This document shows, one piece after another, positions 33,661 to 44,625 of a DNA stretch of 64,000 nt. The stretch is from Qipengyuania vulgaris (GTDB taxonomy: Bacteria; Pseudomonadota; Alphaproteobacteria; Sphingomonadales; Sphingomonadaceae). A program made the position numbers and the translations under genes. The stretch spans positions 682,001 through 746,000 of the forward strand of contig NZ_WTYC01000001.1 of NCBI RefSeq assembly GCF_009827325.1, written 5' to 3'. Each line of letters starts with the position of its first letter. Position 1 is the first letter of the stretch. Under the pieces are notes generated by a model. The model ran no database searches. It saw only the letters and a program-made list of their open reading frames with translations, and had not been told where the DNA came from.

Positions 33661-34612
33661 CTAGTTTTTCGCCTGGATCTCTGGCCAATGCTCGCTCACC
33701 AAGGAGACCACGAGCTGCTCACCTCTTAAAGAAAGGCGATCGATCCATTCATCATCCATCGCCGAAAAATTGGTTCCATAACCAGCAACTGTGTCGCCGG
33801 ATATAAAGTCATCTGGTTTGTTCGAGAGTCGCGCGTCGTCTTGTCCGAGATACGGCATTATGAAGCCACCGATCCTTCCGGCTCGTTGCAGATCGAAGAG
33901 CCGAGTGGTGGATGCGTTCTGAGCCCTCGCAAAAATGCTTTCAAAAACTGCTGCCATGCGTGCTGGCATTAACGACGAGGGCTCGCCAACATCCAGCGAG
34001 TAGCCCGCACGACATGCGATCAATTTGTAAACCGGATCAACCTCCAAGCTTATGGAGTGATCGCGGTCCGGCCAAAACGGCATCAAGCCGAGATTGTCGT
34101 AGACTCCTCCGTCAGTGAGTGAGATCCGATCAGAGCGCTTTGTTCCGTTGCGCTCGAACTCAACGGTGGTATCAAGCGCTGGCAGTGCCAACGGGTATGC
34201 TGCTGATGCTGCGACTGCATCTGCCAGGCTTGTATCTTCGGAGGTCGCTGAACCGTATCGCCAGCAATGCAACTTTTCTCTTGTAAAGTAGAACGCAGCC
34301 TTTGCGCGCAACTCACAGGCGACTATGATCAACCTGGGTCGATCACCACGCAATTCGGACAGGCGCTTCGAACCAAAGACTTTGTCGAAAACTCGCCTCA
34401 AAATTGTCGTTCGACTTGCTCTGCGGTGGAGGATCGTCCGGTATGGCCAGCGATCGCGGCGTGGACTCACTGGCAATAGTGAAATCATCAGCTTCGTCGG
34501 CAAAGCGGCCAATCGATCAAGGGATATGAGCAAGACGGTGAAGAGCGCCTTCAGCCCTTCCAAACTAAAGACCGCTTCGTAGGCTGCCGGCCAGACAAAA
34601 CCTTGTCGCAAC
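33661..34612 (-). pseudogene. Patatin-like phospholipase, 5' part missing
   Basis: About 317 codons of the C-terminal part remain. The patatin signature S-L-A-D-A-V-A-A-S-A-A-Y-P-L and the catalytic Asp block T-D-G-G-V-Y-D-N-L are present. The G-x-S-x-G nucleophile and the glycine-rich oxyanion loop, which should be N-terminal, are absent because the frame is cut by the left end of an IS element at 34613. A TTG inside the fragment could restart translation but would give an enzyme without its serine. Patatins serve as effectors in several defence systems, so this may be a wrecked defence gene. Confidence 0.75.
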
Positions 34613-34630: not shown

Positions 34631-35509
34631 CTAGACGCCCTCGGTGCTCATCATCTGCTGCCGTTCGAACTCTACGGGTGACAGCATCCCGTTTCTCACA
34701 TGCTTGCGTATCGGGTTGTAGAACATCTCGATGTAATCGAACACATCCTGTCTGGCCTCGTCTCGTGAGCGATAGGTCCGCCGCCGGACGCGTTCGCGTT
34801 TGAGCAGGTTGAAGAAGCTCTCGACCACTGCGTTGTCATGGCAGTTGCCACGGCGGCTCATCGAGTGCTCCAGATTGTGGGCCTTCAGGAAGGACGTCCA
34901 GTCCATGCTGGTGAACTGCGATCCCTGATCCGAGTGGATCAGAACCTTCCCTTTTGGCTTCCTGCGCCACACCGCCATCAGCAATGCCTGCAGGACCAGG
35001 TCGGTGGTCTGGCGGTTCTGCATCGACCAGCCCACTACGCGGCGGGAGTAAAGGTCGATCACCACCGCCAGATAGGCAAAGCCTTCCTGTGTTCTTATGT
35101 AGGTGATGTCGGTCACCCATGTCTTGTCCGGTGCCGCGACATCGAACTGGCGGGCCAGCGTGTTGTCGACCACCCTAGATGGCTTGCCGCCATAGCTGCC
35201 CGGCCTGCGCTTGTAGCCGATCTTCGCTTTAATACCCGCCAGACGACTGGCGAGACGCGCCACCCGGTTCGGGCAGCAGGTCTCGCCCTGATCGAGCAGG
35301 TCGTCGTGCAGTTTGCGGTAGCCATAGACCTTGCCGCTGTCTTCCCACGCCTGCCGGATCATCGCAGTCTGGCGAACATCTTCCTTCGCCCGTCTGCTCA
35401 GCGGGTTCTTCAACCAGGCGTAGAAGCCGCTGGGCTGGATGCGAAGACACCGGCACATCGCGCGCACCGGGAACAGCGTGCGATGCTCGGCCACGAACGC
35501 GTATCTCAC
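34631..35509 (-). CDS. IS3-family transposase OrfB (DDE catalytic part)
   Basis: 292 aa from the GTG at 35509, overlapping the orfA stop (GTGA). The catalytic triad is visible: D in V-T-D-I-T-Y-I, D in H-S-D-Q-G-S-Q-F, and E in N-A-V-V-E-S-F-F-N. The Y-G-Y-R-K-L-H block is also typical. Active transposase is usually the OrfAB fusion made by -1 slippage at the A7G run in orfA. Frame intact, so the element may still move. Confidence 0.92.
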   Translation of the reverse strand: MRYAFVAEHRTLFPVRAMCRCLRIQPSGFYAWLKNPLSRRAKEDVRQTAMIRQAWEDSGKVYGYRKLHDDLLDQGETCCPNRVARLASRLAGIKAKIGYKRRPGSYGGKPSRVVDNTLARQFDVAAPDKTWVTDITYIRTQEGFAYLAVVIDLYSRRVVGWSMQNRQTTDLVLQALLMAVWRRKPKGKVLIHSDQGSQFTSMDWTSFLKAHNLEHSMSRRGNCHDNAVVESFFNLLKRERVRRRTYRSRDEARQDVFDYIEMFYNPIRKHVRNGMLSPVEFERQQMMSTEGV

Positions 35510-35772
35510 TTTGCATCCCTGGCGAAATACGCGGTGGCTTTTTTTAGGATGTCGCGCTCCTCGGTCACCCGCTGCAGCTCGCGCTTCAGTTGCCGGATCT
35601 CGGCGTCCTTTGATCCATCTTCGGGCCGCTTTGCGAACTGTCTCTTCCATGCATACAGCGAATGCTGGCTCACGCCGAGTCGCTCGGAAACCTCCGCCAC
35701 CCGGTAGCCCCGCTCGGTGATCTGGGCCACCGCATCGCGCTTGAACTCATCGCTGAAATTAGCCTTCCCCAT
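35506..35772 (-). CDS. IS3-family OrfA (DNA-binding part)
   Basis: 88 aa. A helix-turn-helix (V-A-E-V-S-E-R-L-G-V-S-Q-H-S-L-Y-A-W-K) is followed by a leucine-zipper-like coiled coil (I-R-Q-L-K-R-E-L-Q-R-V). The slippery heptamer lies near the 3' end, at D-I-L-K-K-A. It binds the terminal repeats and forms the N-terminal half of the OrfAB transposase. Confidence 0.92.
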   Translation of the reverse strand: MGKANFSDEFKRDAVAQITERGYRVAEVSERLGVSQHSLYAWKRQFAKRPEDGSKDAEIRQLKRELQRVTEERDILKKATAYFARDAK

Positions 35773-35831
35773 CGTCGCCTCCTGTCCTCAAAATTAGGAA
35801 AGAAAGCGTCCACAAATCTAGGGGCTATTCA

Positions 35832-36939
35832 CACCCCGTTAGGCGACATCCATGCGAGGTTTGGGTTTATCGATGACATCATCATGCCTCATGCGCACGT
35901 AACGAATGAGCGGCGGATTGCATCAGATGCCGAGAGCTATCCCGAGCAGTTGACGGAATATGAAACGACACCGAAAGCCGAACACCTTCTTTCCCCGGAA
36001 TTCGTTGAGGCGTGGCAAGAGCAGTTCGGCGCAGGTTTTGACGAAACCCGAGCGCTCGTAGATGCGATTGAAGACATTGGCATCAAGGCGGAGTCCGCTG
36101 TTCAGCAGCTCAAGAAAAGTGAACTTCTAGCGATCGGTGACGGGGCTTGGCCAATTACCTCCTCTTCCGTCGCGAGCCTCTTAGACGCACTTATCCACTT
36201 GCCGCGTTCCACATGGCGGGAAACGCCTGACGGGTTCGAGGATCGCGACCGGCATCCTTGGCGCTTCCGCCGACAGCTTTCGCTACTACGGCGCCCATTG
36301 ATCCAGCTTGATGAGGATAGCGATCCAACGCTCATATTTGCTCCTGGCCAGATGCGCGACAGTTTCAAATATATGCTTGGAAATCTGCTTCGCGGTGAGT
36401 TCCCGCAAACTCAGCTTTCGCCGAAAATGAAGCGTTGGGCTGGCAAGGCTGCCGACAAGAAAGGACACGATTTCACGCTGAAAGTAGCGGAGCGCTTGAG
36501 AGAACTCGGATGGTGCACCGAGACCGAGGTGACAATCCCCAAGATCTTGGGCGAGCGCCAAGACAGGAACTACGGCGACGTCGATGTTCTAGCATGGGAT
36601 TCGAACAGCCGCCGGGTATTGATCGTTGAGTGCAAGGATGTGCATTTTCGGAAGACCTACGGCGAAGTGGCGGAGCAACTCGCTGATTTCCGGGGCGTCA
36701 TCCGTGAGAATGGAAAGCCCGATTATCTGCGTAAACACCTTGATCGCGTCGAAATTCTTCGCGGCAATATCGACGCTGTGGCGAGGTTCACCAAGGTCGC
36801 CGATTTGACCGACGTCGAGAGCCACCTAGTTTTTGCGGACCCGGTTCCATTGGAGTTCGCACTTGCACAGATGTCCGAGCAGGTTCGTATCTCACATTTT
36901 GATCGCCTAGGCACGGCGCTGGTCTGGGAAGCACCATAA
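35832..36939 (+). pseudogene. C-terminal fragment of a nuclease-domain protein, cut by IS A
   Basis: About 369 codons open from the right IS end to a stop at 36939. No ribosome binding site or start fits the 5' end; the frame simply runs out of the IS. The C-terminal part carries a PD-(D/E)xK nuclease core: D-V-D-V-L-A-W-D followed by V-L-I-V-E-C-K-D. The N-terminal part must have lain to the left, where a patatin fragment in the opposite orientation now stands. The original protein is unknown. An internal ATG (M-P-H-A-H) could start a shorter protein. Confidence 0.65.
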
Positions 36940-37131: not shown

Positions 37132-38097
37132 CTAGTGCGACTTCTGAACCCCCAAGGCCTCCAAGACGTGAGGAGAAATAACATCAGGATCATACGGGAG
37201 GCGCAACGACGGCTTTTTATCCTCAACCTGGAACTGTGTGCCAAAGATTTGCGGCTGATTTGTCGCCAGCAAAAAGCGATCGAGGGAAGCTGCCGCAATC
37301 CAGCGTGCGGACGGTTCACCGCGTGCCAGTGCGACCATCGCCAAAGCGTGTGCTTGTAAATAATCCGATGGCTCTTCGCCGTGTTGAAAGATGAATGCAG
37401 CGAAATAAAAGTCCCTTCCTGATTTCAATTGACCTTCCCGCAGCAAACTCTTTGCTCGATTCCGCCTTTCTCGATCCCGGAGTGCCAGCAAATGCAGCCC
37501 TTGGTCATCTAACGAGGCAGCGTCGCTTCTTTCGCGCTGGTCTTCGTCAAAGATCGACGCGATTTCGCGGTTACTTGGGCGAAATCTAAGGTGACTATAG
37601 CGGGCGTTTGAGTCCCAATCTTCAAATGCGCATTTTCCCTCACTCGGAGCCCTCAGCATGGTGAAAGGCTCAAAGGGTAGCAGTTTAAATGAAAATTCCC
37701 CCTTGGTTTGATCTACGGGACTTAACTCGATGATGTCGGGGTTGTCAGGGTCACCGGGATCTTCAAACGCAATTGCGAGAGTACCTTCCTGTTCCTCAAT
37801 CCAAAGAGATCTTCGCGAGACGGCGGGGCCGGACACCTGCCAAAAATCTTCTCCGTCCGTCAGATATTCAGACGGTGCAAGAAGAGAGGCACTCCACGCT
37901 TCCTCCTTGGTCAAATCAATTCGGAAAATTGCCTGACTTTCTGCACAAACGTACCATGAACCTTGTAGACCCGCCAAGCTGCTGGCGTCTGTCCGCCCCG
38001 CATGCAAAGCACCCGCCCCTAGGAGGCAAAGAGATATCGGCACAGTTCTAAACATTCTCAGGAATGCGCCACTTCGTAGGACCTGATCATATCCCAT
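37132..38097 (-). CDS. Exported DUF6624-type protein of the ATP-grasp operon
   Basis: 321 aa from the ATG at 38097, with GGAG nine bases upstream. A signal peptide ends near L-L-G-A-G-A-L-H-A (residues 26-34). The C-terminal 120 residues show the DUF6624 pattern: D-D-Q-G, D-R-E-R-R-N-R-A, then F-Y-F-A-A-F-I-F-Q-H-G, A-H-A-L-A-M, and A-A-S-L-D-R-F-L, ending Q-I-F-G-T-Q-F. The domain's function is unknown. The gene follows the ATP-grasp gene by 19 bp and is last in the operon. It could be a substrate, a binding protein or an immunity factor. Confidence 0.78.
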   Translation of the reverse strand: MGYDQVLRSGAFLRMFRTVPISLCLLGAGALHAGRTDASSLAGLQGSWYVCAESQAIFRIDLTKEEAWSASLLAPSEYLTDGEDFWQVSGPAVSRRSLWIEEQEGTLAIAFEDPGDPDNPDIIELSPVDQTKGEFSFKLLPFEPFTMLRAPSEGKCAFEDWDSNARYSHLRFRPSNREIASIFDEDQRERSDAASLDDQGLHLLALRDRERRNRAKSLLREGQLKSGRDFYFAAFIFQHGEEPSDYLQAHALAMVALARGEPSARWIAAASLDRFLLATNQPQIFGTQFQVEDKKPSLRLPYDPDVISPHVLEALGVQKSH

Positions 38098-38116
38098 TAC
38101 AAAGCACTCCAGATAG

Positions 38117-39277
38117 CTAAGCAGAAAGCGCGGGGACCTGCTCACCAATATCGGTCACAAAGCCCAAATCAGGGCTAGGGAAAAACTTAAACTGCTCAAT
38201 GTACTTTTGGTATTCCGGGTCACTCAGCACATCGGGAAACAGGTTTTGGGCGCTGGACGCATCCCAGTCGCTTAGGGTTCCCCAAGCCAGAAAGTGGCAA
38301 AACGCGTCGGTGATAGGAACCTCTGGGCATTTATTCTCCAAGAAAAGGAATTGTCCGCTCTCGTTCACTTCCAAGAAGACAACTTCATCGTCAGGCGTTA
38401 TGATAAAATCAAACGCCCCATACGTTAGGTTAAGCTCCTTCATTAGCTGCAAGCACTTCTCGAATAAGGACGGTGATAGCTCATAGGGATAGCACTTTAC
38501 GCCACTCAAACCAGACATTCTCCAGTCTACGATTGCCTTTTCATGTCCCTGGGATTCGATCGCTATGCCGAATTGTTTCTCCCCGAAGATAGTTACCCTC
38601 GCCTCATACTTCTTTTCTATATATTGTTGGAAGATAGCCGGCTGAAGTCTTACAGCTTCGTCAGTGCGCGAGGAACGTGGCGGGAAAATTGCCGAATAGG
38701 CGTGCCAACTCGATTGCTCTCCCTTCCAAGTGTGAGGAAGAAGCGATTTGCAAATGAGCCGTCCTCGAGCTTTCTCACGGAAGCGCTCCACCTGTTCAGG
38801 TGAGTTGGTGATTAGGGTCTGTGGGATTTGCAAGCCGAGTTGTGCCGCAATAATCAGTTGCAGATGCTTACTGTTTCCAATCATCTTAGCTGGAAAATCG
38901 TTGACCATCAGACTCCCGGCATTCTTGCACATAACATCAATCATCGACAGAATTGATTTCCGGTGAGCTTTGTGAATTTGCTCTATATATGGCCGATCAT
39001 CTTCGTGGATTTCAAACTCCTTGACGGAGTCTCCCGCCGTCCGTCGGAGCCAGACGGTATCATAGACGACATCAGGACCCAGGATCGTTTGGCTCTCGGT
39101 TGAGAATGACCACCCGTCGCCCACGTAAGTGGTTTGCTCATCGTAATAGGGAATGAGGCTTGGCATAAAGAATTCGACCTGAACACCCCTCCTCTCCAGC
39201 AAAAATGCCATTACGTAGGCCGTGTGATCTTGGGGCTCTGCGACGATAAGCACACGTGGGGATCGAAAATTGGTCAT
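38117..39277 (-). CDS. ATP-grasp peptide-ligase-like enzyme (MvdC/MvdD-type)
   Basis: 386 aa. The N-terminal pre-ATP-grasp region is followed by V-N-D-F-P-A-K-M-I-G-N-S-K-H-L-Q-L, then G-L-Q-I-P-Q-T-L-I-T-N-S, the pattern of graspetide ligases such as MvdD, and by the ATP/metal site F-L-E-V-N-E-S-G-Q-F near residue 310. These enzymes join acidic side chains of a ribosomal peptide to Ser, Thr or Lys. Here the gene lies 1 bp after fic and before an exported protein. Substrate unknown; see the small ORF at 40107-40199. Confidence 0.83.
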   Translation of the reverse strand: MTNFRSPRVLIVAEPQDHTAYVMAFLLERRGVQVEFFMPSLIPYYDEQTTYVGDGWSFSTESQTILGPDVVYDTVWLRRTAGDSVKEFEIHEDDRPYIEQIHKAHRKSILSMIDVMCKNAGSLMVNDFPAKMIGNSKHLQLIIAAQLGLQIPQTLITNSPEQVERFREKARGRLICKSLLPHTWKGEQSSWHAYSAIFPPRSSRTDEAVRLQPAIFQQYIEKKYEARVTIFGEKQFGIAIESQGHEKAIVDWRMSGLSGVKCYPYELSPSLFEKCLQLMKELNLTYGAFDFIITPDDEVVFLEVNESGQFLFLENKCPEVPITDAFCHFLAWGTLSDWDASSAQNLFPDVLSDPEYQKYIEQFKFFPSPDLGFVTDIGEQVPALSA

Positions 39278-39278
39278 T

Positions 39279-40052
39279 CTAAAGCTCCGAGATACCTCTC
39301 TCCAATGCTGTGAATTGGCAGCAGAGTTCGATGAGATCTAACATGAATTGGAGAAATTCCTCCCATCTTCCGTCTTGGGCCATGCCGCGGAATGCCGGCG
39401 TGAAAGAGTTTCCATAATGATAAATCATGGGGCCTAGCGGAAGAAAGGGTGCTGAAATCACTCCTCGATTTGCAAGATTTCCATGAAAAATTGCGCGCGC
39501 CACACGTCCATTGCCTTCTTTTAAAGGATGAAAAATTACGAAGACCGCGTATAGAATTACCGCCTCCAACAACGGAGGAAAGGATCGACGCGCTCGGACA
39601 TTCTTCAATTCCGGATGCCATAGCCGCGAATTCTCTACATTTATGTATTTCCAACCCGCAACATGCCCCATCCGTGGCTTGACTATTTCATTGTTGCGAA
39701 ATTGGGCCACTTCGCCGAGCAATTTTGAGCCCATCTCAATGGCCCACTCAGGGTTGACTTGCCAATCGAGGAACTGCTCCCATCGCTCGACGAGAACCGG
39801 CTCCGAGCATAGCCTTTCTTGAAAGGTCGCCAGGCTCGGCGCGCGGTAAGAAATCCGAGGATGCGTCGCTATGCGCTCATCGTGCAAAGAAACAGTTTGC
39901 AGGAGTCCCGAGGCTCGAACTTCGCTCCCGTAGCTCCGCCACACTGCATTTTCGTAGTATCGGTTGAGCGAGGTGACGACACTCTCCAGCTCACAATATC
40001 GTTCCGTCAGGTGCGGTGAGCATTCCGGTAAGGTAAATCGGTCCTCTCGCAT
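39279..40052 (-). CDS. Fic-domain protein (AMPylator-like)
   Basis: 257 aa from the ATG at 40052, preferred over 40076 because the latter is only a few bases from a terminator stem. The Fic motif is complete: H-P-L-K-E-G-N-G-R-V-A-R near residue 180. Family members usually transfer AMP or another nucleotide phosphate from a co-substrate to a protein hydroxyl. An inhibitory S/T-x-x-x-E-[G/N] helix was not seen. First gene of a Fic/ATP-grasp/DUF6624 operon, an association I do not recognise from any described system. Confidence 0.87.
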   Translation of the reverse strand: MREDRFTLPECSPHLTERYCELESVVTSLNRYYENAVWRSYGSEVRASGLLQTVSLHDERIATHPRISYRAPSLATFQERLCSEPVLVERWEQFLDWQVNPEWAIEMGSKLLGEVAQFRNNEIVKPRMGHVAGWKYINVENSRLWHPELKNVRARRSFPPLLEAVILYAVFVIFHPLKEGNGRVARAIFHGNLANRGVISAPFLPLGPMIYHYGNSFTPAFRGMAQDGRWEEFLQFMLDLIELCCQFTALERGISEL

Positions 40053-40078
40053 TGCGACCCTATTGAGCAAAGCCATCG

Positions 40079-40108
40079 AAAAAAGGGCGCCCGTAGACGC
40101 CCTTTTTC
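40079..40108 (-). terminator. Terminator or attenuator before the fic operon
   Basis: AAAAAGGGCG (40079-40088) pairs with CGCCCTTTTT (40098-40107), loop of 9. On the minus strand it ends the 40614-40107 genes and is followed by T residues; the fic start is only 27 bp further on. There is little room for a new promoter, so partial read-through may set fic-operon expression. Confidence 0.7.
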
Positions 40109-40199
40109 ACTTAGTCGGCGTCGACGCCAACGTCATAGTCGGGACGAGGGAATGTGGGCTCCCAAGCTCCTCTGTCGCCGACTTATTTGCCTCGGACAT
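40107..40199 (-). CDS. Short ORF before the terminator (possible precursor peptide)
   Basis: 30 codons from ATG 40199 to TGA just before the terminator stem. In this frame the end is T-L-A-S-T-P-T-K. In the neighbouring frame the same DNA encodes G-A-W-E-P-T-F-P-R-P-D-Y-D-V-G-V-D-A-D and a stop (40111-40113), which looks more peptide-like and acidic; one extra base near 40170 would join it to the ATG. Neither frame has a strong ribosome binding site. Listed because RiPP operons commonly place a short gene before a leaky terminator and the maturation enzymes. Confidence 0.25.
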   Translation of the reverse strand: MSEANKSATEELGSPHSLVPTMTLASTPTK

Positions 40200-40203
40200 G
40201 GAT

Positions 40204-40614
40204 CTATTTGGGCACCAGCCGTCCATTTGGATGCGCAGCTTGCTCGACGATGTAGACCACCGGTTCATACCAAATTGCCCCGGTATCGGGGTCGACGCAT
40301 TTTTCTAGGTGCCCGCCCCAAACATAGTTCTTCCCGTCGGCGTCGCTGCGTGGCGGCAAGCTCATTGTGCTCCGTCGCACCGGCATCTTCGCGCGCACTG
40401 GCACACCAAAGATGAGCGGCATGGGCTGGAAATAGATGCGGCCATTTCGAGTGGCGCTACGCGCAAGCGGTCGAATTACCTGCTCACCGGTCTTCGGATT
40501 AATGAGCCTCTCGAATATAGGTTCGAGAGGCACGGCGTCGGGCGGCGGATTGGCGTTAGCGTCCACTGTGAAATTTATACCGCCCGGCGCTTGTCTGGAA
40601 GCGCGCGGGCTCAT
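40204..40614 (-). CDS. Hypothetical protein downstream of a truncated gene
   Basis: 136 aa, overlapping the upstream fragment by 4 bp. Proline-rich N-terminus; C-terminal part with Y-V-W-G-G-H-L-E-K-C-V-D-P-D-T-G-A-I-W. No family recognised. Its promoter probably lay upstream of the region removed when IS B arrived, so expression is uncertain. Confidence 0.5.
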   Translation of the reverse strand: MSPRASRQAPGGINFTVDANANPPPDAVPLEPIFERLINPKTGEQVIRPLARSATRNGRIYFQPMPLIFGVPVRAKMPVRRSTMSLPPRSDADGKNYVWGGHLEKCVDPDTGAIWYEPVVYIVEQAAHPNGRLVPK

Positions 40615-41256
40615 CGCTGATAGTATTGATACTTTCGAGGATCAGCCTGATCCTGGAACGGTTTTCGCTCTTGCTCGGTCCGCGCCTTCTCCAAGGCGCG
40701 GAGGCGCTCCGCATTCTCAGGTTTCTTTAAAGCTTCCGCAATAGCCTTGAGTTTGGTCCTCTGGTGTTGATCAAGACGCCTGTAGGTATCTTGATCGAGC
40801 TTGATGCTCGCGGCGCGGGCCTCGGCCATCAGAATAAGCCTGCGTCCATCGGGTTCACTCAAAGCGCGTTCAAGTGCGTCTCGCCCTGCCGAGATCTGCG
40901 CGGCAAGACTATTCTGTCTTGCGCGGGCGGAATGCTGCCACCGCGGACCGGAGATGCCATGCTCGCTCATCGCCCGTTCCAGCGCGGCAGCTTCAAGAAG
41001 TGTGTCGTCTGCGCTAAGGCGGACCTCGAACATCTTCTTCTCGGTATATTGAATGCTTCGCAGTGAAGGCGCCACAGCCTCTAGGTCCGCCGGGGTAGGC
41101 GCAAGCGCGACCTCGCCAAATTGGGAGGGCCGTCTCAGGAGTTCGTTTTGCGCATGCCGAAGCCCCTTGTTGCGCGCCTGCTCGCGGAATGCCTGATAGG
41201 CACCATCTGCCTGGACAAAGCTGCGGCGGAACAACGCAAGGCTCTGTTCGGTGTGG
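40611..41256 (-). pseudogene. C-terminal fragment of an unknown helical protein, cut by IS B
   Basis: About 215 codons, open straight out of the IS end at 41257. The sequence is strongly helical and charged, with Q-R-T-K-L-K-A-I-A-E-A-L-K-K-P-E-N-A-E-R-L near the C-terminus. No start or ribosome site belongs to the fragment; the apparent start lies inside the IS. It could be the tail of a relaxase or large effector, but I cannot identify it. Confidence 0.55.
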
Positions 41257-41303
41257 TGTCCCCCGTCAGCACCTATGGCACAGATTGGCGGTTGTGATTT
41301 AAG

Positions 41304-41358
41304 GAGGATTTGGGCTTCGTCGTAGTGACGAAGGAACGAAGATGAAGCCCAAATCCTC
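41304..41358 (+). repeat. 15-bp perfect inverted repeat around the IS B orfA start
   Basis: Arms at 41304-41318 and 41344-41358 are perfect complements with a 25-base spacer holding the ribosome site region; the ATG at 41342 is directly before the second arm. A transcript entering from outside would fold and hide the start, as in fold-back inhibition of IS10 transposase. Confidence 0.6.
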
Positions 41359-41716
41359 AAGGTCCAAATCGCCTGCCGAGCAGGTGGTGAAGGACATCCG
41401 CCGCAAGACCCGTCGGCATTTCTCTGCAGAAGACAAGATCCGGATCGTGCTCGATGGCCTGCGCGGTGATGACTCCATCGCCGAGCTGTGTCGCCGCGAA
41501 GGGATCGCCCAGAGCTTGTATTACACCTGGTCCAAGGAGTTCATGGAAGCCGGCAAGCGTCGCCTGGCTGGCGATACTGCGCGTGCTGCGACCACGGACG
41601 AGGTGAAGGATTTGCGCCGTGAGGCACGCGATCTGAAGGAGTGTGTGGCCGATCTCACTTTGGAGAACCGGCTGCTCAAAAAAAGCATGATCGCGGATGG
41701 GGGTGACGACGAATGA
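41342..41716 (+). CDS. IS3-family OrfA of IS B
   Basis: 124 aa. The helix-turn-helix (D-S-I-A-E-L-C-R-R-E-G-I-A-Q-S-L-Y-Y-T-W) and the C-terminal coiled coil (E-A-R-D-L-K-E-C-V-A-D-L-T-L-E-N) are those of IS3 OrfA. It ends in ATGA with orfB. A run of seven A and a G (41678-41685) looks slippery, but a stop at 41704 in the -1 frame blocks a simple fusion, so orfB is probably made by translational coupling. Confidence 0.9.
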   Translation: MKPKSSRSKSPAEQVVKDIRRKTRRHFSAEDKIRIVLDGLRGDDSIAELCRREGIAQSLYYTWSKEFMEAGKRRLAGDTARAATTDEVKDLRREARDLKECVADLTLENRLLKKSMIADGGDDE

Positions 41717-42693
41717 GGTATCCCGCATCCGAGAAGCTCGAGATTATCAGGATCGTCGAGCAGTCGCATCTGCCTGCCAAGCGCACGCTGGATCAGCTCG
41801 GTGTGGCTAGGCGCACCTTCTACCGCTGGTACGATCGCTTCCTCGAGGGCGGGCCCGAGGCGCTTCAGGACCGCCCTTCAGCGCCGAGCCGGGTGTGGAA
41901 CCGCATCGGAGACGATATCCAGCAGCAGATCGTCGAGATGGCACTGGAGCAGACCGAGCTGTCCCCGCGCGAGCTGGCCGTGCGCTTCACCGACGAGAAG
42001 CGCTACTTCGTGTCGGAAGCCACGGTCTATCGCCTCCTGAAGGCCCACGACCTCATCACCAGCCCGGCCTACACGGTGATCAAGGCGGCAGAGGCGTTCC
42101 ACACCCAGACCACCCAGCCCAACGAGATGTGGCAGACGGACTTCACCTACTTCAAGATCATCGGGTGGGGCTGGGTCTACCTCTCGACTGTGCTCGACGA
42201 CTACTCACGCTACATCATCGCCTGGAAGCTCTGCACGACGATGAAGGCTGAGGACGTCACCGAGACGCTCGACATGGCACTGACCGCCTCAGGCTGCGAC
42301 CATGCCAATGTCCTGCACAGGCCGCGCCTGCTCAGTGACAACGGTCCCAGTTACATCGCCGGAGAACTGGCCAGCTATCTCGAAGGCAAGGCCATGGATC
42401 ATATACGCGGTGCGCCCTTCCATCCGCAGACCCAGGGCAAGATCGAGCGGTGGCACCAGACGCTGAAGAACCGCGTCCTGCTGGAGAACTACTTCCTGCC
42501 TGGCGATCTCGAACAGCAGATCAAGGCCTTCGCCGAGCACTACAACCATCAGCGCTACCACGAGAGCCTGAAAAACGTGACGCCTGCCGATGCCTACTTC
42601 GGCAGGGCAACCGCCATCATCGAACGAAGAGAAAGGATCAAGCGACAGACACTCGAACATCGGCGCTTGCAACACCGCAGGCTCGCCGCCTAA
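41713..42693 (+). CDS. IS3-family transposase OrfB of IS B
   Basis: 326 aa with the DDE triad: D in W-Q-T-D-F-T-Y, D in L-L-S-D-N-G-P-S-Y and E in Q-G-K-I-E-R-W-H-Q. An N-terminal helix-turn-helix (T-L-D-Q-L-G-V-A-R-R-T-F-Y-R-W) is present, so this OrfB can bind DNA itself. Frame intact. Confidence 0.93.
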   Translation: MRYPASEKLEIIRIVEQSHLPAKRTLDQLGVARRTFYRWYDRFLEGGPEALQDRPSAPSRVWNRIGDDIQQQIVEMALEQTELSPRELAVRFTDEKRYFVSEATVYRLLKAHDLITSPAYTVIKAAEAFHTQTTQPNEMWQTDFTYFKIIGWGWVYLSTVLDDYSRYIIAWKLCTTMKAEDVTETLDMALTASGCDHANVLHRPRLLSDNGPSYIAGELASYLEGKAMDHIRGAPFHPQTQGKIERWHQTLKNRVLLENYFLPGDLEQQIKAFAEHYNHQRYHESLKNVTPADAYFGRATAIIERRERIKRQTLEHRRLQHRRLAA

Positions 42694-42767
42694 ACATCAA
42701 ACCCAGACAAGGCCCACACTCCGTAAGCCTACGCCGCGAGTTGTGCCAAATGTTCTGACGACGGACA

Positions 42768-43513
42768 ATCGCGGAATTCAAGCTGTTTGAGCTCGTCCGG
42801 CCTGAGCCCGGTATTGGCCGCGAAAAGTACAAAGTCGTGCAACTGCTCCGCATGCCACCGATAGTGCGGACGCTGCGGGTCCGCCGCGTTGGATCGCGTG
42901 GCCTGATACAATAGCTTATATTCGTTTGGCGTAAACCAGGGTCGATGTTCGACCTTGGTTTGGCGACGGTAAGGATCTGAAAGATCTGGGACGTGTTCGA
43001 TCCATCCGTGACGGTAGGCGGTCTTCAGCACCATGCTCAGCGTTACGACTTCGTTGTGAAGTGTGTTGCGCGCAGGCGGCTTCCACTCCTTCTCGTCATC
43101 GTTCCAGCCTTCCGGCTTAGTCATCCGCTTCACACGGTATTCCTGAGCGGTGCCGGAGGTGATGCTCTTAACGGGCATCTTTTCGAAGTGAGGTAGTAAA
43201 TGAAGCCTGATCCGGTCTTTGTGGCCCTGCACCCACTTGGGGCTGCGCCGGCCACGGGTGATCGCTTCGTACTCTTTTCAAATTGCTTTGCGGCCTGAGC
43301 AAAGGTTTTGCCGGACTCGAGCTCGCCAAATCTCTTTTTGGCGCAGAGCTCCAGATACCAATCTTCGGCAACGTCTTTGGCGCGACCGAGGCTGCGCAGC
43401 TTCGTGCTTTTGCGCCACTCCTTGCCGTCGAGGTATGTGGAGCAGTGCCAGTTACCGCCGTCCGCACGGCGGTAGAGGCGGACCTTGTCACCTAAGATTC
43501 GATGTATTTCCAA
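42768..43513 (-). pseudogene. int: Tyrosine integrase, frameshifted and 3'-truncated (tRNA-fMet type)
   Basis: The N-terminal part (from 43513) and the core-binding and early catalytic part (to 42768) are in two frames joined by a missing A in the run at 43275-43278. The catalytic region stops after N-T-G-L-R-P-D-E-L-K-Q-L-E-F, which includes the first catalytic Arg; the H-x-x-R and Tyr boxes were removed by IS B. The gene begins 140 bp from a 45-bp tRNA-fMet fragment, the usual place of an integrase beside its attachment site. It is a dead integrase of an older element. Confidence 0.82.
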
Positions 43514-43652
43514 AGCGCCTCCCTTTGTGTGCGTTTGTGTGAGCGCTGTGCGACTCCATTTTAGTGTATCACGGGGGAGTTTTGAGCGTCAAATGCGTGC
43601 CGCAGACAAAGAAAAAACCCCTATGAAAAAAATGGTTTAATCATTTTGTCGG

Positions 43653-43698
<46 letters not shown>

Positions 43699-44380
43699 GC
43701 TTGCCCCGCGGCGAATACTTGACCGAGCTGCAAAGACCCCGTTCGCGAACGGCCGTCATGACGCGGGTGTATCGCCGTGTCCGCAGAAACTCGTCGAAGA
43801 TAAACCGGACGATCTCAGCTTCTGGCTCGTCGACCTTTAACCCCTGAGGAGTGGCAACATAGCCGAATGGCGGCAAACCACCGTGCATTTTCCCGTGCCG
43901 CTTGCGCGTGCGGATGCTGTCGCGCACCCTTTCCGCGATAAGCTCGCGTTCGAACTGGGAGAAGGTAAGCAGCACATTGAGGATCATCAGGCCCATACTG
44001 TCGGAAGTATCAAAGGCCTGTGAGATGGAGACCAGAGCTATGTTAAGGCGATCGAAGATCTCGATCATCCTAACGAAATCGGCAAGGCTACCGGTCAGCC
44101 GGTCGATCTTGTACACCACGACAACGTCGATTTCTCCTGCTTCGATATGCTGCATGAGCTGCGAGAGCGCAGGGCGATCCATTCCGCTCCCCGAATGGCC
44201 GCCATCGTCGTATCGGTTGGGCAGCTCGACCCAACCCTTGTACTGCTGACTCTTGACATAGGCGCTACTGATTTCGCGCTGCGTAACCAGTGAATTGACA
44301 TCATGTTCGAGGCGCTGGTTAGTGCTCTTGCGGGTGTAAATTGCGCACCGTTTCAACGGTGCGATAGCTTCGATATCCAT
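43699..44380 (-). pseudogene. Large serine recombinase, 3'-truncated
   Basis: About 227 codons from the ATG at 44380, with GGAG seven bases upstream. The resolvase domain is intact: nucleophile S19 in Y-T-R-K-S, V-V-V-Y-K-I-D-R-L-T and F-S-Q-F-E-R-E-L-I-A-E-R-V-R-D. The recombinase domain has only begun (F-G-Y-V, E-F-L-R-T-R-R-Y-T) when the frame runs into the tRNA-fMet fragment, so the DNA-binding zinc domain is gone. Strand exchange is unlikely. Confidence 0.8.
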
Positions 44381-44625
44381 GGGCAAACTCCGAAATTCCT
44401 TCGAAACATCGCCCCGTTGCGATCGGCGGAGAAGGTCTAAGCGCCGGATGTGGAGAATTATGCGGCTATATGAAGAGCAAGGGCATCTCGCGCCTGACCG
44501 CTCCCCTTGGAGCGATCAGCCATCGACCTTCAGCCTAAGTCGATTGCCAGCATTGCAAGGTCTGCTCTTGTCTTTTTACCCAAACGCGGACTGATAGTTT
44601 TCTGCCGAGTATCTGGCATGGAAAA

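What the first reader, a model, noticed from the sequence alone, without database searches (positions are those of the whole stretch)
37132..40052. Fic + ATP-grasp ligase + exported DUF6624 operon: a possible undescribed modification or toxin system
Three adjacent minus-strand genes with gaps of 1 and 19 bp encode a Fic protein with a complete HPLKEGNGRVAR motif, an MvdD-like ATP-grasp ligase and a signal-peptide protein with a DUF6624-like domain. Fic enzymes modify proteins with nucleotides; MvdD-type enzymes cross-link or extend peptides. I know of no described system with this trio. It lies in ICE cargo, where defence and competition systems gather.
Basis: partly seen in the sequence, partly recalled or inferred. 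Interest (0 to 1): 0.72.

Follow-up and report, generated by a model that had tools for sequence, protein, structure and literature searches.

The report
Mobile peptide-crosslinking operon with Fic enzyme
A three-gene mobile operon in a marine bacterium pairs a peptide cross-linking enzyme with a Fic (nucleotide-transfer) enzyme and an exported protein, and pairs of these parts recur in related peptide-making clusters, suggesting an undescribed way of decorating small bacterial peptides, although its own peptide and exporter genes are missing.

Summary
In detail: three intact minus-strand genes (Fic, ATP-grasp, exported protein) with gaps of 1 and 19 bp lie in low-GC cargo of an F-type conjugative element. 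The ATP-grasp is not a housekeeping ligase: its best solved relatives are graspetide synthetases, and in a tree it sits in a clade (0.96) where five of six other members have a double-glycine-leader precursor beside them. The third protein has a divergent DUF6624-type C-terminus; DUF6624 was reported in 2026 as frequent in several graspetide groups. The new element is the Fic. Among 40 other graspetide-type loci, one (unnamed sphingomonad G043) has a small Fic beside precursor, synthetase and exporter. The best plasmid match of that Fic by E-value (Sphingomonas MM-1) lies 1 bp behind a broken NHLM-type peptide exporter. The complete trio was not found elsewhere. The window has no recognisable precursor or exporter; the genome's one recognisable precursor belongs to a second cluster on another contig. 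Best reading: a partial or in-trans graspetide module in which Fic nucleotidylates the peptide or protects the producer. The Fic link rests on few loci, and the window Fic does not group with the other two. New variant of a known kind.

The parts
39279..40052 (-). Fic protein, 257 aa from ATG 40052 (265 aa from ATG 40076), FIC motif HPLKEGNGRVAR, no [ST]xxxE[GN] autoinhibitory motif
38117..39277 (-). Graspetide-synthetase-like ATP-grasp ligase, 386 aa; the columns invariant in a 14-sequence alignment include K177, R227, D251, R253, D290, E303, N305
37132..38097 (-). Exported (by eye) two-domain protein, 321 aa: N-terminal domain found in short frames elsewhere, C-terminal divergent DUF6624-type domain (QHG ... 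GTQ)
40079..40108 (-). Hairpin with A and U tracts (intrinsic-terminator-like) directly upstream of fic; fold z-score -4.06. Marks the upstream edge of the trio's transcription unit; the consensus scan did not list it
35662..36939 (+). Convergent neighbour, not part of the operon: C-terminal piece of an Upx-type anti-phage gene; bounds the cargo on the downstream side

Best explanation
The trio is a mobile, incomplete graspetide-type (RiPP) modification module. The ATP-grasp enzyme would form side-chain ester or amide cross-links in a leader-bearing peptide (supported by homology and tree). The small Fic enzyme would then transfer AMP or another nucleotide-derived group onto that peptide, giving a decorated graspetide (inferred). 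The exported two-domain DUF6624-type protein would act in the periplasm on the exported product, as processing or immunity factor (inferred). As it stands the operon has no recognisable precursor or exporter of its own, so it either works in trans on the peptide and exporter of the genome's second cluster (contig C12) or lost its upstream and downstream genes when it became conjugative-element cargo.
For: PDB sequence relatives of the ATP-grasp at E<=0.01 are six, all titled ATP-grasp proteins, AMdnB or CdnC: 5ig9 6e-34, 7m4s (AMdnB), 5ig8, 7mgv (CdnC), and weaker 9bou and 7drm (that 5ig9/5ig8 are MdnC/MdnB and 7drm PsnB is recalled). In the tree it sits in a 0.963 clade with G110, Legionella, Bradyrhizobium, G1080, G000-C12 and G677, apart from six sphingomonad RimK-like ligases. 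Five of those six other members have a double-glycine-leader precursor ORF beside them. G043 holds precursor, ATP-grasp, NHLM-like exporter and a 261-aa Fic within 6 kb. The best plasmid hit by E-value of the G043 Fic (9e-16; of two records), found by Fic sequence alone, is a 260-aa Fic 1 bp behind a broken NHLM-type exporter in Sphingomonas MM-1. A true DUF6624 (4e-16) and a homologue of the third protein (34% over 276 aa) lie about 6 and 7 kb from the G110 ATP-grasp. DUF6624 is reported frequent in graspetide groups 18, 20, 23 and 42. Trio GC (49-52%) matches the C12 cluster (50-53%). 0 of 47 loci of other Fics carried ATP-grasp, HlyD, DUF or Trx relatives.
Against: No GG-leader precursor candidate in the 64 kb by pattern, and none in the whole genome by profile except C12. 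No exporter in the 12 kb around the trio. Only 1 of 40 other graspetide-type loci has a Fic. The window Fic does not group with the G043/MM-1 Fics in a tree (their pair 0.981; the window Fic is nearest an ordinary Fic, L029). Five plasmid loci of related exporters (5 of 1039 records) show no annotated Fic. Other relatives of the third protein (L080-L083) have no ATP-grasp in the 13 kb read. The nucleotidylation step itself has no direct evidence.
Confidence: 0.45

Rival explanations
1. Fic is an immunity or target-modifying factor: it modifies a host protein (as topoisomerase-AMPylating Fics do) so that the producer tolerates the cross-linked peptide, while the ATP-grasp makes the peptide and the exported protein adds periplasmic protection.
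For: Fics that AMPylate topoisomerase IV are described (PMC7479194, title and start of abstract seen in the listing). In G043 the Fic is followed by what reads by eye as a TonB receptor. RiPP clusters usually carry immunity genes (recalled).
Against: An immunity gene need not be coupled to the synthetase gene as closely as here (1-bp gap). The protein target is unknown. Not testable here.
Confidence: 0.25
2. The trio is a decaying fragment of a graspetide cluster carried as cargo, with no present function; the precursor, thiol-redox and exporter genes were lost at both junctions.
For: No precursor or exporter recognised. A terminator-like hairpin abuts the fic start, leaving little room for a promoter. 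Transposase genes and a truncated Upx gene lie on both sides.
Against: All three frames are intact and well spaced, with ribosome-site-like GGAG before genes 2 and 3 by eye. A cluster that could supply precursor and exporter exists in the same genome.
Confidence: 0.2
3. An anti-phage or toxin-antitoxin system in which Fic is the toxin or effector and the ATP-grasp and exported protein are modulators.
For: Conjugative-element cargo next to an Upx-type defence remnant. PADLOC lists SoFic and Fic-containing candidate models for the Fic. An unidentified 136-aa ORF lies upstream.
Against: No inhibitory motif, no PADLOC hit for the ATP-grasp or third protein. The two other small Fics with context sit in peptide-export loci.
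Confidence: 0.08

Closest known systems
GG-leader graspetide (omega-ester peptide) clusters with NHLM-type exporters; groups 18/20/23 of Carter et al. 2026 (PMC13097080) are the nearest by stated content
   Same: Graspetide-type ATP-grasp and a DUF6624-type protein; several sister synthetases have GG-leader precursors and exporters
   Different: No recognisable precursor or exporter here; a Fic gene is present, and no word beginning with Fic occurs in that paper's main text. Group assignment not tested
Microviridin MvdC/MvdD (MdnB/MdnC) ATP-grasp ligases
   Same: Among the closest solved relatives of the ATP-grasp (chain identities partly recalled)
   Different: In the tree it lies outside the MvdC/MvdD pair; a single ligase instead of two, no microviridin precursor seen; below the NCBIfam cut-offs
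SoFic-type protein adenylyltransferases
   Same: FIC core and complete catalytic motif
   Different: Similarity limited to about 100 residues; 257-265 aa instead of about 360-390; no autoinhibitory motif by pattern; NF046030 37.6 bits against a cut-off of 550
Microcin C type nucleotide-decorated peptides (recalled)
   Same: Would share the idea of a nucleotide attached to a small ribosomal peptide
   Different: Microcin C uses the ThiF-like MccB, not Fic, and has no ATP-grasp cross-links (recalled)

Membership tests
Graspetide synthetase (ATP-grasp RiPP maturase) | Sequence relationship to characterised graspetide synthetases rather than RimK/GshB-type ligases | tested here: met
Graspetide synthetase (ATP-grasp RiPP maturase) | Conserved ATP-grasp residues across the family intact | tested here: met
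   present in all columns invariant in the 14-sequence alignment; aligned over the catalytic half to 5ig9, AMdnB, 5ig8 and CdnC
Graspetide biosynthetic cluster | Precursor peptide gene in the locus | tested here: not met
   0 GG-leader candidates in 64 kb by pattern; the only one in the genome by profile is at C12. A precursor without a GG leader would be missed
Graspetide biosynthetic cluster | Cross-linked peptide product | not testable with these tools
   needs mass spectrometry
Exporter-linked graspetide subgroup | HlyD and peptidase-ABC exporter in the locus | tested here: not met
   none in L009, a 12-kb stretch around the trio
DUF6624 (PF20329) | Score above the Pfam gathering cut-off | tested here: not met
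   no hit at E<=1; in the own genome the best match is 12.6 bits elsewhere. Relationship only transitive; hhalign with a true DUF6624 gave probability 20%
Fic/Doc | FIC motif HxFx[DE]GN[GK]R and Pfam score above cut-off | tested here: met
   HPLKEGNGRVAR (L instead of F at position 3), 25.6 vs 24 bits
Fic toxin-antitoxin (class I-III) | Inhibitory [ST]xxxE[GN] helix in cis or in an adjacent antitoxin | tested here: inconclusive
   no motif in the Fic itself; downstream neighbour is the ATP-grasp; upstream, beyond the hairpin, an unidentified 136-aa ORF was not tested for the motif
Fic protein adenylyltransferase | AMP transfer activity | not testable with these tools
   needs assay

The most novel reading that the evidence does not exclude
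A Fic-tailored RiPP: a Fic domain enzyme nucleotidylates (or otherwise transfers part of a nucleotide onto) a cross-linked graspetide, and this decoration module travels on conjugative elements among sphingomonads, in one case supplied in trans to a resident peptide cluster. It would be the first Fic enzyme in ribosomal peptide biosynthesis known to me, and small Fics may have been recruited for it more than once.
Probability: 0.28. Interest if true: 0.82.

Novelty: new variant of a known kind. Interest (0 to 1): 0.52.

Why it matters
Fic enzymes are studied as toxins, effectors and chaperone regulators (recalled). If they also decorate ribosomal peptides, that adds a new tailoring chemistry to RiPPs, gives a possible role to a class of small orphan Fics, and makes a pool of peptide clusters findable by a Fic marker. 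It also gives the recently noticed, unexplained DUF6624-graspetide association a compact mobile test case.

Tried and rejected
Structure prediction of the Fic and of the third protein: single-sequence models with mean pLDDT 33 and 43, so no fold search was run; only a beta-rich N-terminus and a helical C-terminus for the third protein are hinted at.

Viral contigs: pattern-seeded scans found no relative of the Fic, the ATP-grasp or the DUF alignment. Phage records: one weak Fic hit. So this is not evidently phage-borne; the scans need exact short peptide matches and can miss relatives.

Housekeeping ligase: rejected by tree and PDB relatives.

A stricter first leader pattern gave one window candidate, 38983-39186, an alternative frame inside the ATP-grasp gene; rejected as chance. 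The second pattern gave none. A core-like tail frame just upstream of fic (about 40100-40170) was looked at by eye and rejected: no start codon in that frame and no leader. The upstream stretch 40077-41340 has no plasmid relative in the rows seen beyond its IS end.

All three small Fics as one clade: not supported. PCAT hits in two other Fic loci (L028, L030, E about 1e-25 and 1e-27) were taken as generic ABC transporters and not counted as peptide exporters; this is my reading, not a test.

ATP-grasp hits L065 and L066 (E about 1e-23 to 1e-24) were left out of the count of graspetide-type loci; neither has a Fic motif. Of 76 plasmid records with an ATP-grasp match only three were put through the Fic scan; two more (Nostoc, Streptomyces) show no annotated Fic. 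Survey regions run from 5 to 20 kb and some end at contig ends, so absence of neighbours is not complete.
Full report
WHAT IS THERE. The window is G000:C11:682001-746000 of a 3.23-Mb genome in 19 contigs. A 13,158-bp stretch around the trio is identical to Erythrobacter sp. AP23 NZ_LNBY01000018.1. The trio has GC 49-52% and third-position GC 51-56%, against 61-64% and 65-73% for the coupling-protein, ParB and primase genes; a methyltransferase gene of the element is intermediate at 56% and 58%. Surrounding genes include an F-type conjugation set and an integrase. Upstream of fic a 13-pair hairpin with A and U tracts ends 2 bp before the 40076 start and 26 bp before ATG 40052 (z -4.06); downstream lies a convergent C-terminal piece of an Upx-type gene.

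THE ATP-GRASP. NCBIfam ranks it as a RiPP maturase (TIGR04187 1e-48, MvdD 3e-47, MvdC 5e-41), but every score is below the curated cut-off, so it is a divergent member. Six PDB sequences match at E<=0.01: two titled ATP grasp ligase (5ig9, 5ig8; MdnC and MdnB from recall), AMdnB, CdnC, and two weaker ATP-grasp domain proteins (9bou, 7drm); the four best align over the catalytic half, CdnC over nearly the whole length. A profile of 14 relatives was run over three samples. Family: 20 places at E<=8e-53, then a gap to 4e-21, in 397 genomes, own included. Class: 5 further places in 385 genomes. Phylum: 10 further places in 398 genomes. In a FastTree of 47 sequences the window protein falls in a clade (0.963) with G110, Legionella adelaidensis plasmid, Bradyrhizobium CB82 plasmid, G1080, G000's own second copy on C12, and G677; six sphingomonad proteins that read as RimK-like form a separate group used as root. 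Two borderline proteins (L065, L066) fall on a long branch among other synthetases. Placement inside the window's clade is unresolved (0.507).

THE SISTER LOCI DEFINE A PEPTIDE SYSTEM. Five of the six other clade members have beside them a short ORF with a leader ending in AGG and a short core: G000-C12 (L008:6314-6466, minus), G110 (L079:1245-1484), Legionella (three copies), Bradyrhizobium (L022) and G1080 (L106). G043, outside the clade, has one too (L063:4286-4471). For G677 none was found. C12, G110, Legionella and G043 also carry a peptidase-ABC exporter; none was found in the stretches held for Bradyrhizobium, G1080 and G677. For C12 and G043 the best model is the NHLM exporter TIGR03796, below its cut-off. 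The window has 0 such precursors in 64 kb by pattern. A profile of the eight precursors finds only the C12 one in the whole genome (E 5e-14; next 0.66, inside a long frame). No exporter lies in the 12 kb around the trio.

THE THIRD PROTEIN. It has an exported N-terminus (by eye), a middle domain matched in short frames of 178-225 codons in G102, G066, G079 and G103, and a C-terminal domain found alone in several sphingomonads. It gives no DUF6624 hit itself. Relatives 43-48% identical in the C-terminal domain hit DUF6624 weakly (L081 1.5e-4, L080 0.002, L023 0.034), while L082, L083 and the G110 homologue give none. hhalign against a true DUF6624 was weak (probability 20%). G110 holds a homologue over both domains (34%, residues 61-334); G043 (contig C10) and G024/G109 match in the C-terminal domain only but have long N-terminal parts. 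The G110 homologue lies about 7 kb from its ATP-grasp and next to a true DUF6624 (E 4e-16); those of G043 and G024 have no ATP-grasp in the 13 kb read. In print, DUF6624 is reported at high frequency in graspetide groups 18, 20, 23 and 42 and called a possible undiscovered class of biosynthetic enzyme (PMC13097080; abstract, section 7 and passages seen). An earlier survey reports an uncharacterised, often signal-peptide-bearing family with conserved histidine and arginine (cluster 23) common in graspetide loci (PMC8939145; abstract, section 7 and passages seen); whether cluster 23 equals DUF6624 I did not test.

THE FIC. It carries the complete motif but is short and has no inhibitory motif by pattern; in PDB and NCBIfam only the core of about 100 residues matches SoFic-type enzymes. 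In the class sample 112 of 385 genomes, own included, had a match at E<=1e-3; the best outside the own genome was 8.6e-12 over 86 residues. I examined neighbourhoods of 40 other graspetide-type loci: 33 loci holding all 34 places-52 other than the window's own, 3 plasmid loci (of 76 records matched) and 4 genome-contig loci. One has a Fic motif ORF: G043, 261 aa, with precursor, ATP-grasp, NHLM-like exporter and a small CxxC protein. With at least 0.4 Fic matches per genome about 0.06 would be expected by my rough estimate, so suggestive but not strong alone. The independent support is Sphingomonas sp. MM-1 pISP0: searching plasmids with the G043 Fic alone returned two records; one is MM-1, where a 260-aa Fic starts 1 bp after an NHLM-type exporter gene split by an IS5 element, near traA. 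The other (Gluconobacter, 24%) is a split Fic without annotated peptide genes in the region. Searching with the MM-1 Fic added only two weak Neisseria matches (38% over a third of the query, E 4e-6), not followed up. A three-Fic profile in 103 family genomes matched full length only in G000 and G043, which were in the profile, then dropped from 351 to 46 bits. Of 47 loci of other Fics, 0 had ATP-grasp, HlyD, DUF or Trx relatives within the 2.3-3.4 kb held, and 2 had ABC proteins at generic scores.

RESULTS AGAINST. In the Fic tree G043 and MM-1 pair (0.981) but the window Fic does not join them. Window and G043 Fics are 26% identical over 78 residues by BLAST. Five plasmid loci with exporters related to G043's, chosen from 1039 records, show no annotated Fic. 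No locus examined other than the window has all three trio parts. So the association is peptide cluster with some small Fic, possibly recruited more than once, not a conserved trio.

MECHANISM. Shown by sequence: an intact graspetide-type ligase gene 1 bp behind a Fic gene with an intact motif, and a DUF6624-type protein with a signal-like N-terminus downstream. Inferred: the ligase cross-links a leader peptide; Fic adds a nucleotide moiety to it or protects a target; the third protein acts after export. The only recognisable substrate in the genome is the C12 precursor, and the C12 cluster shares the trio's base composition, so trans action is possible; loss of the native precursor at the upstream junction is equally open.

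NOVELTY. Library searches for Fic with ATP-grasp, graspetide, RiPP, AMPylation or biosynthetic gene cluster terms listed no paper that, by title and start of abstract, describes such a link. Of those listed I opened only PMC8939145, PMC13097080 and PMC4431377 (the last for passages only; its one Fic mention is about conflict systems in general). The library covers only open-licence PMC papers. I file the ATP-grasp as graspetide-synthetase-like, do not file the locus as a graspetide cluster (precursor test not met), and do not file the third protein as DUF6624 (cut-off not met).

Noticed in passing
window 34631-36939: C-terminal piece of an Upx-type anti-phage gene (NF042954 positions 884-1226 of 1240, E 1e-86) cut off beside what reads by eye as an IS3-like element.
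   Followed up: partly
L008 (G000:C12:148000-162000): A graspetide cluster in the same genome: precursor with GG leader and 17-residue core on the opposite strand, glutaredoxin-like protein, ATP-grasp, HlyD, peptidase-ABC exporter, and an exported protein that resembles by eye one next to the G677 ATP-grasp.
   Followed up: yes
L116 (NC_020542.1 40676-59086): Sphingomonas MM-1 plasmid: small Fic gene 1 bp behind an NHLM-type peptide exporter that is split by an IS5 element, near traA.
   Followed up: yes
L024:4629-4991: Pseudomonas aeruginosa RW109 plasmid ORF of 120 aa with four repeats of the kind TKT...E.DD just before a graspetide-type ATP-grasp: a likely multi-core precursor, annotated as hypothetical.
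   Followed up: no
L079:8752-11377: A true DUF6624 protein and, on the other strand, a two-domain relative of the window protein side by side at the end of a graspetide cluster.
   Followed up: partly
window 33661-34611: Patatin-like phospholipase gene (PF01734, E 4e-9) beside the IS3-like element, possibly another defence cargo gene; weak similarity (E 0.014) to an anti-phage phospholipase model.
   Followed up: no
window 42729-44386: Fragment with phage-integrase N-terminal similarity and a resolvase-domain ORF next to the transposase at 41342-42693; the cargo region has probably been rearranged several times.
   Followed up: no
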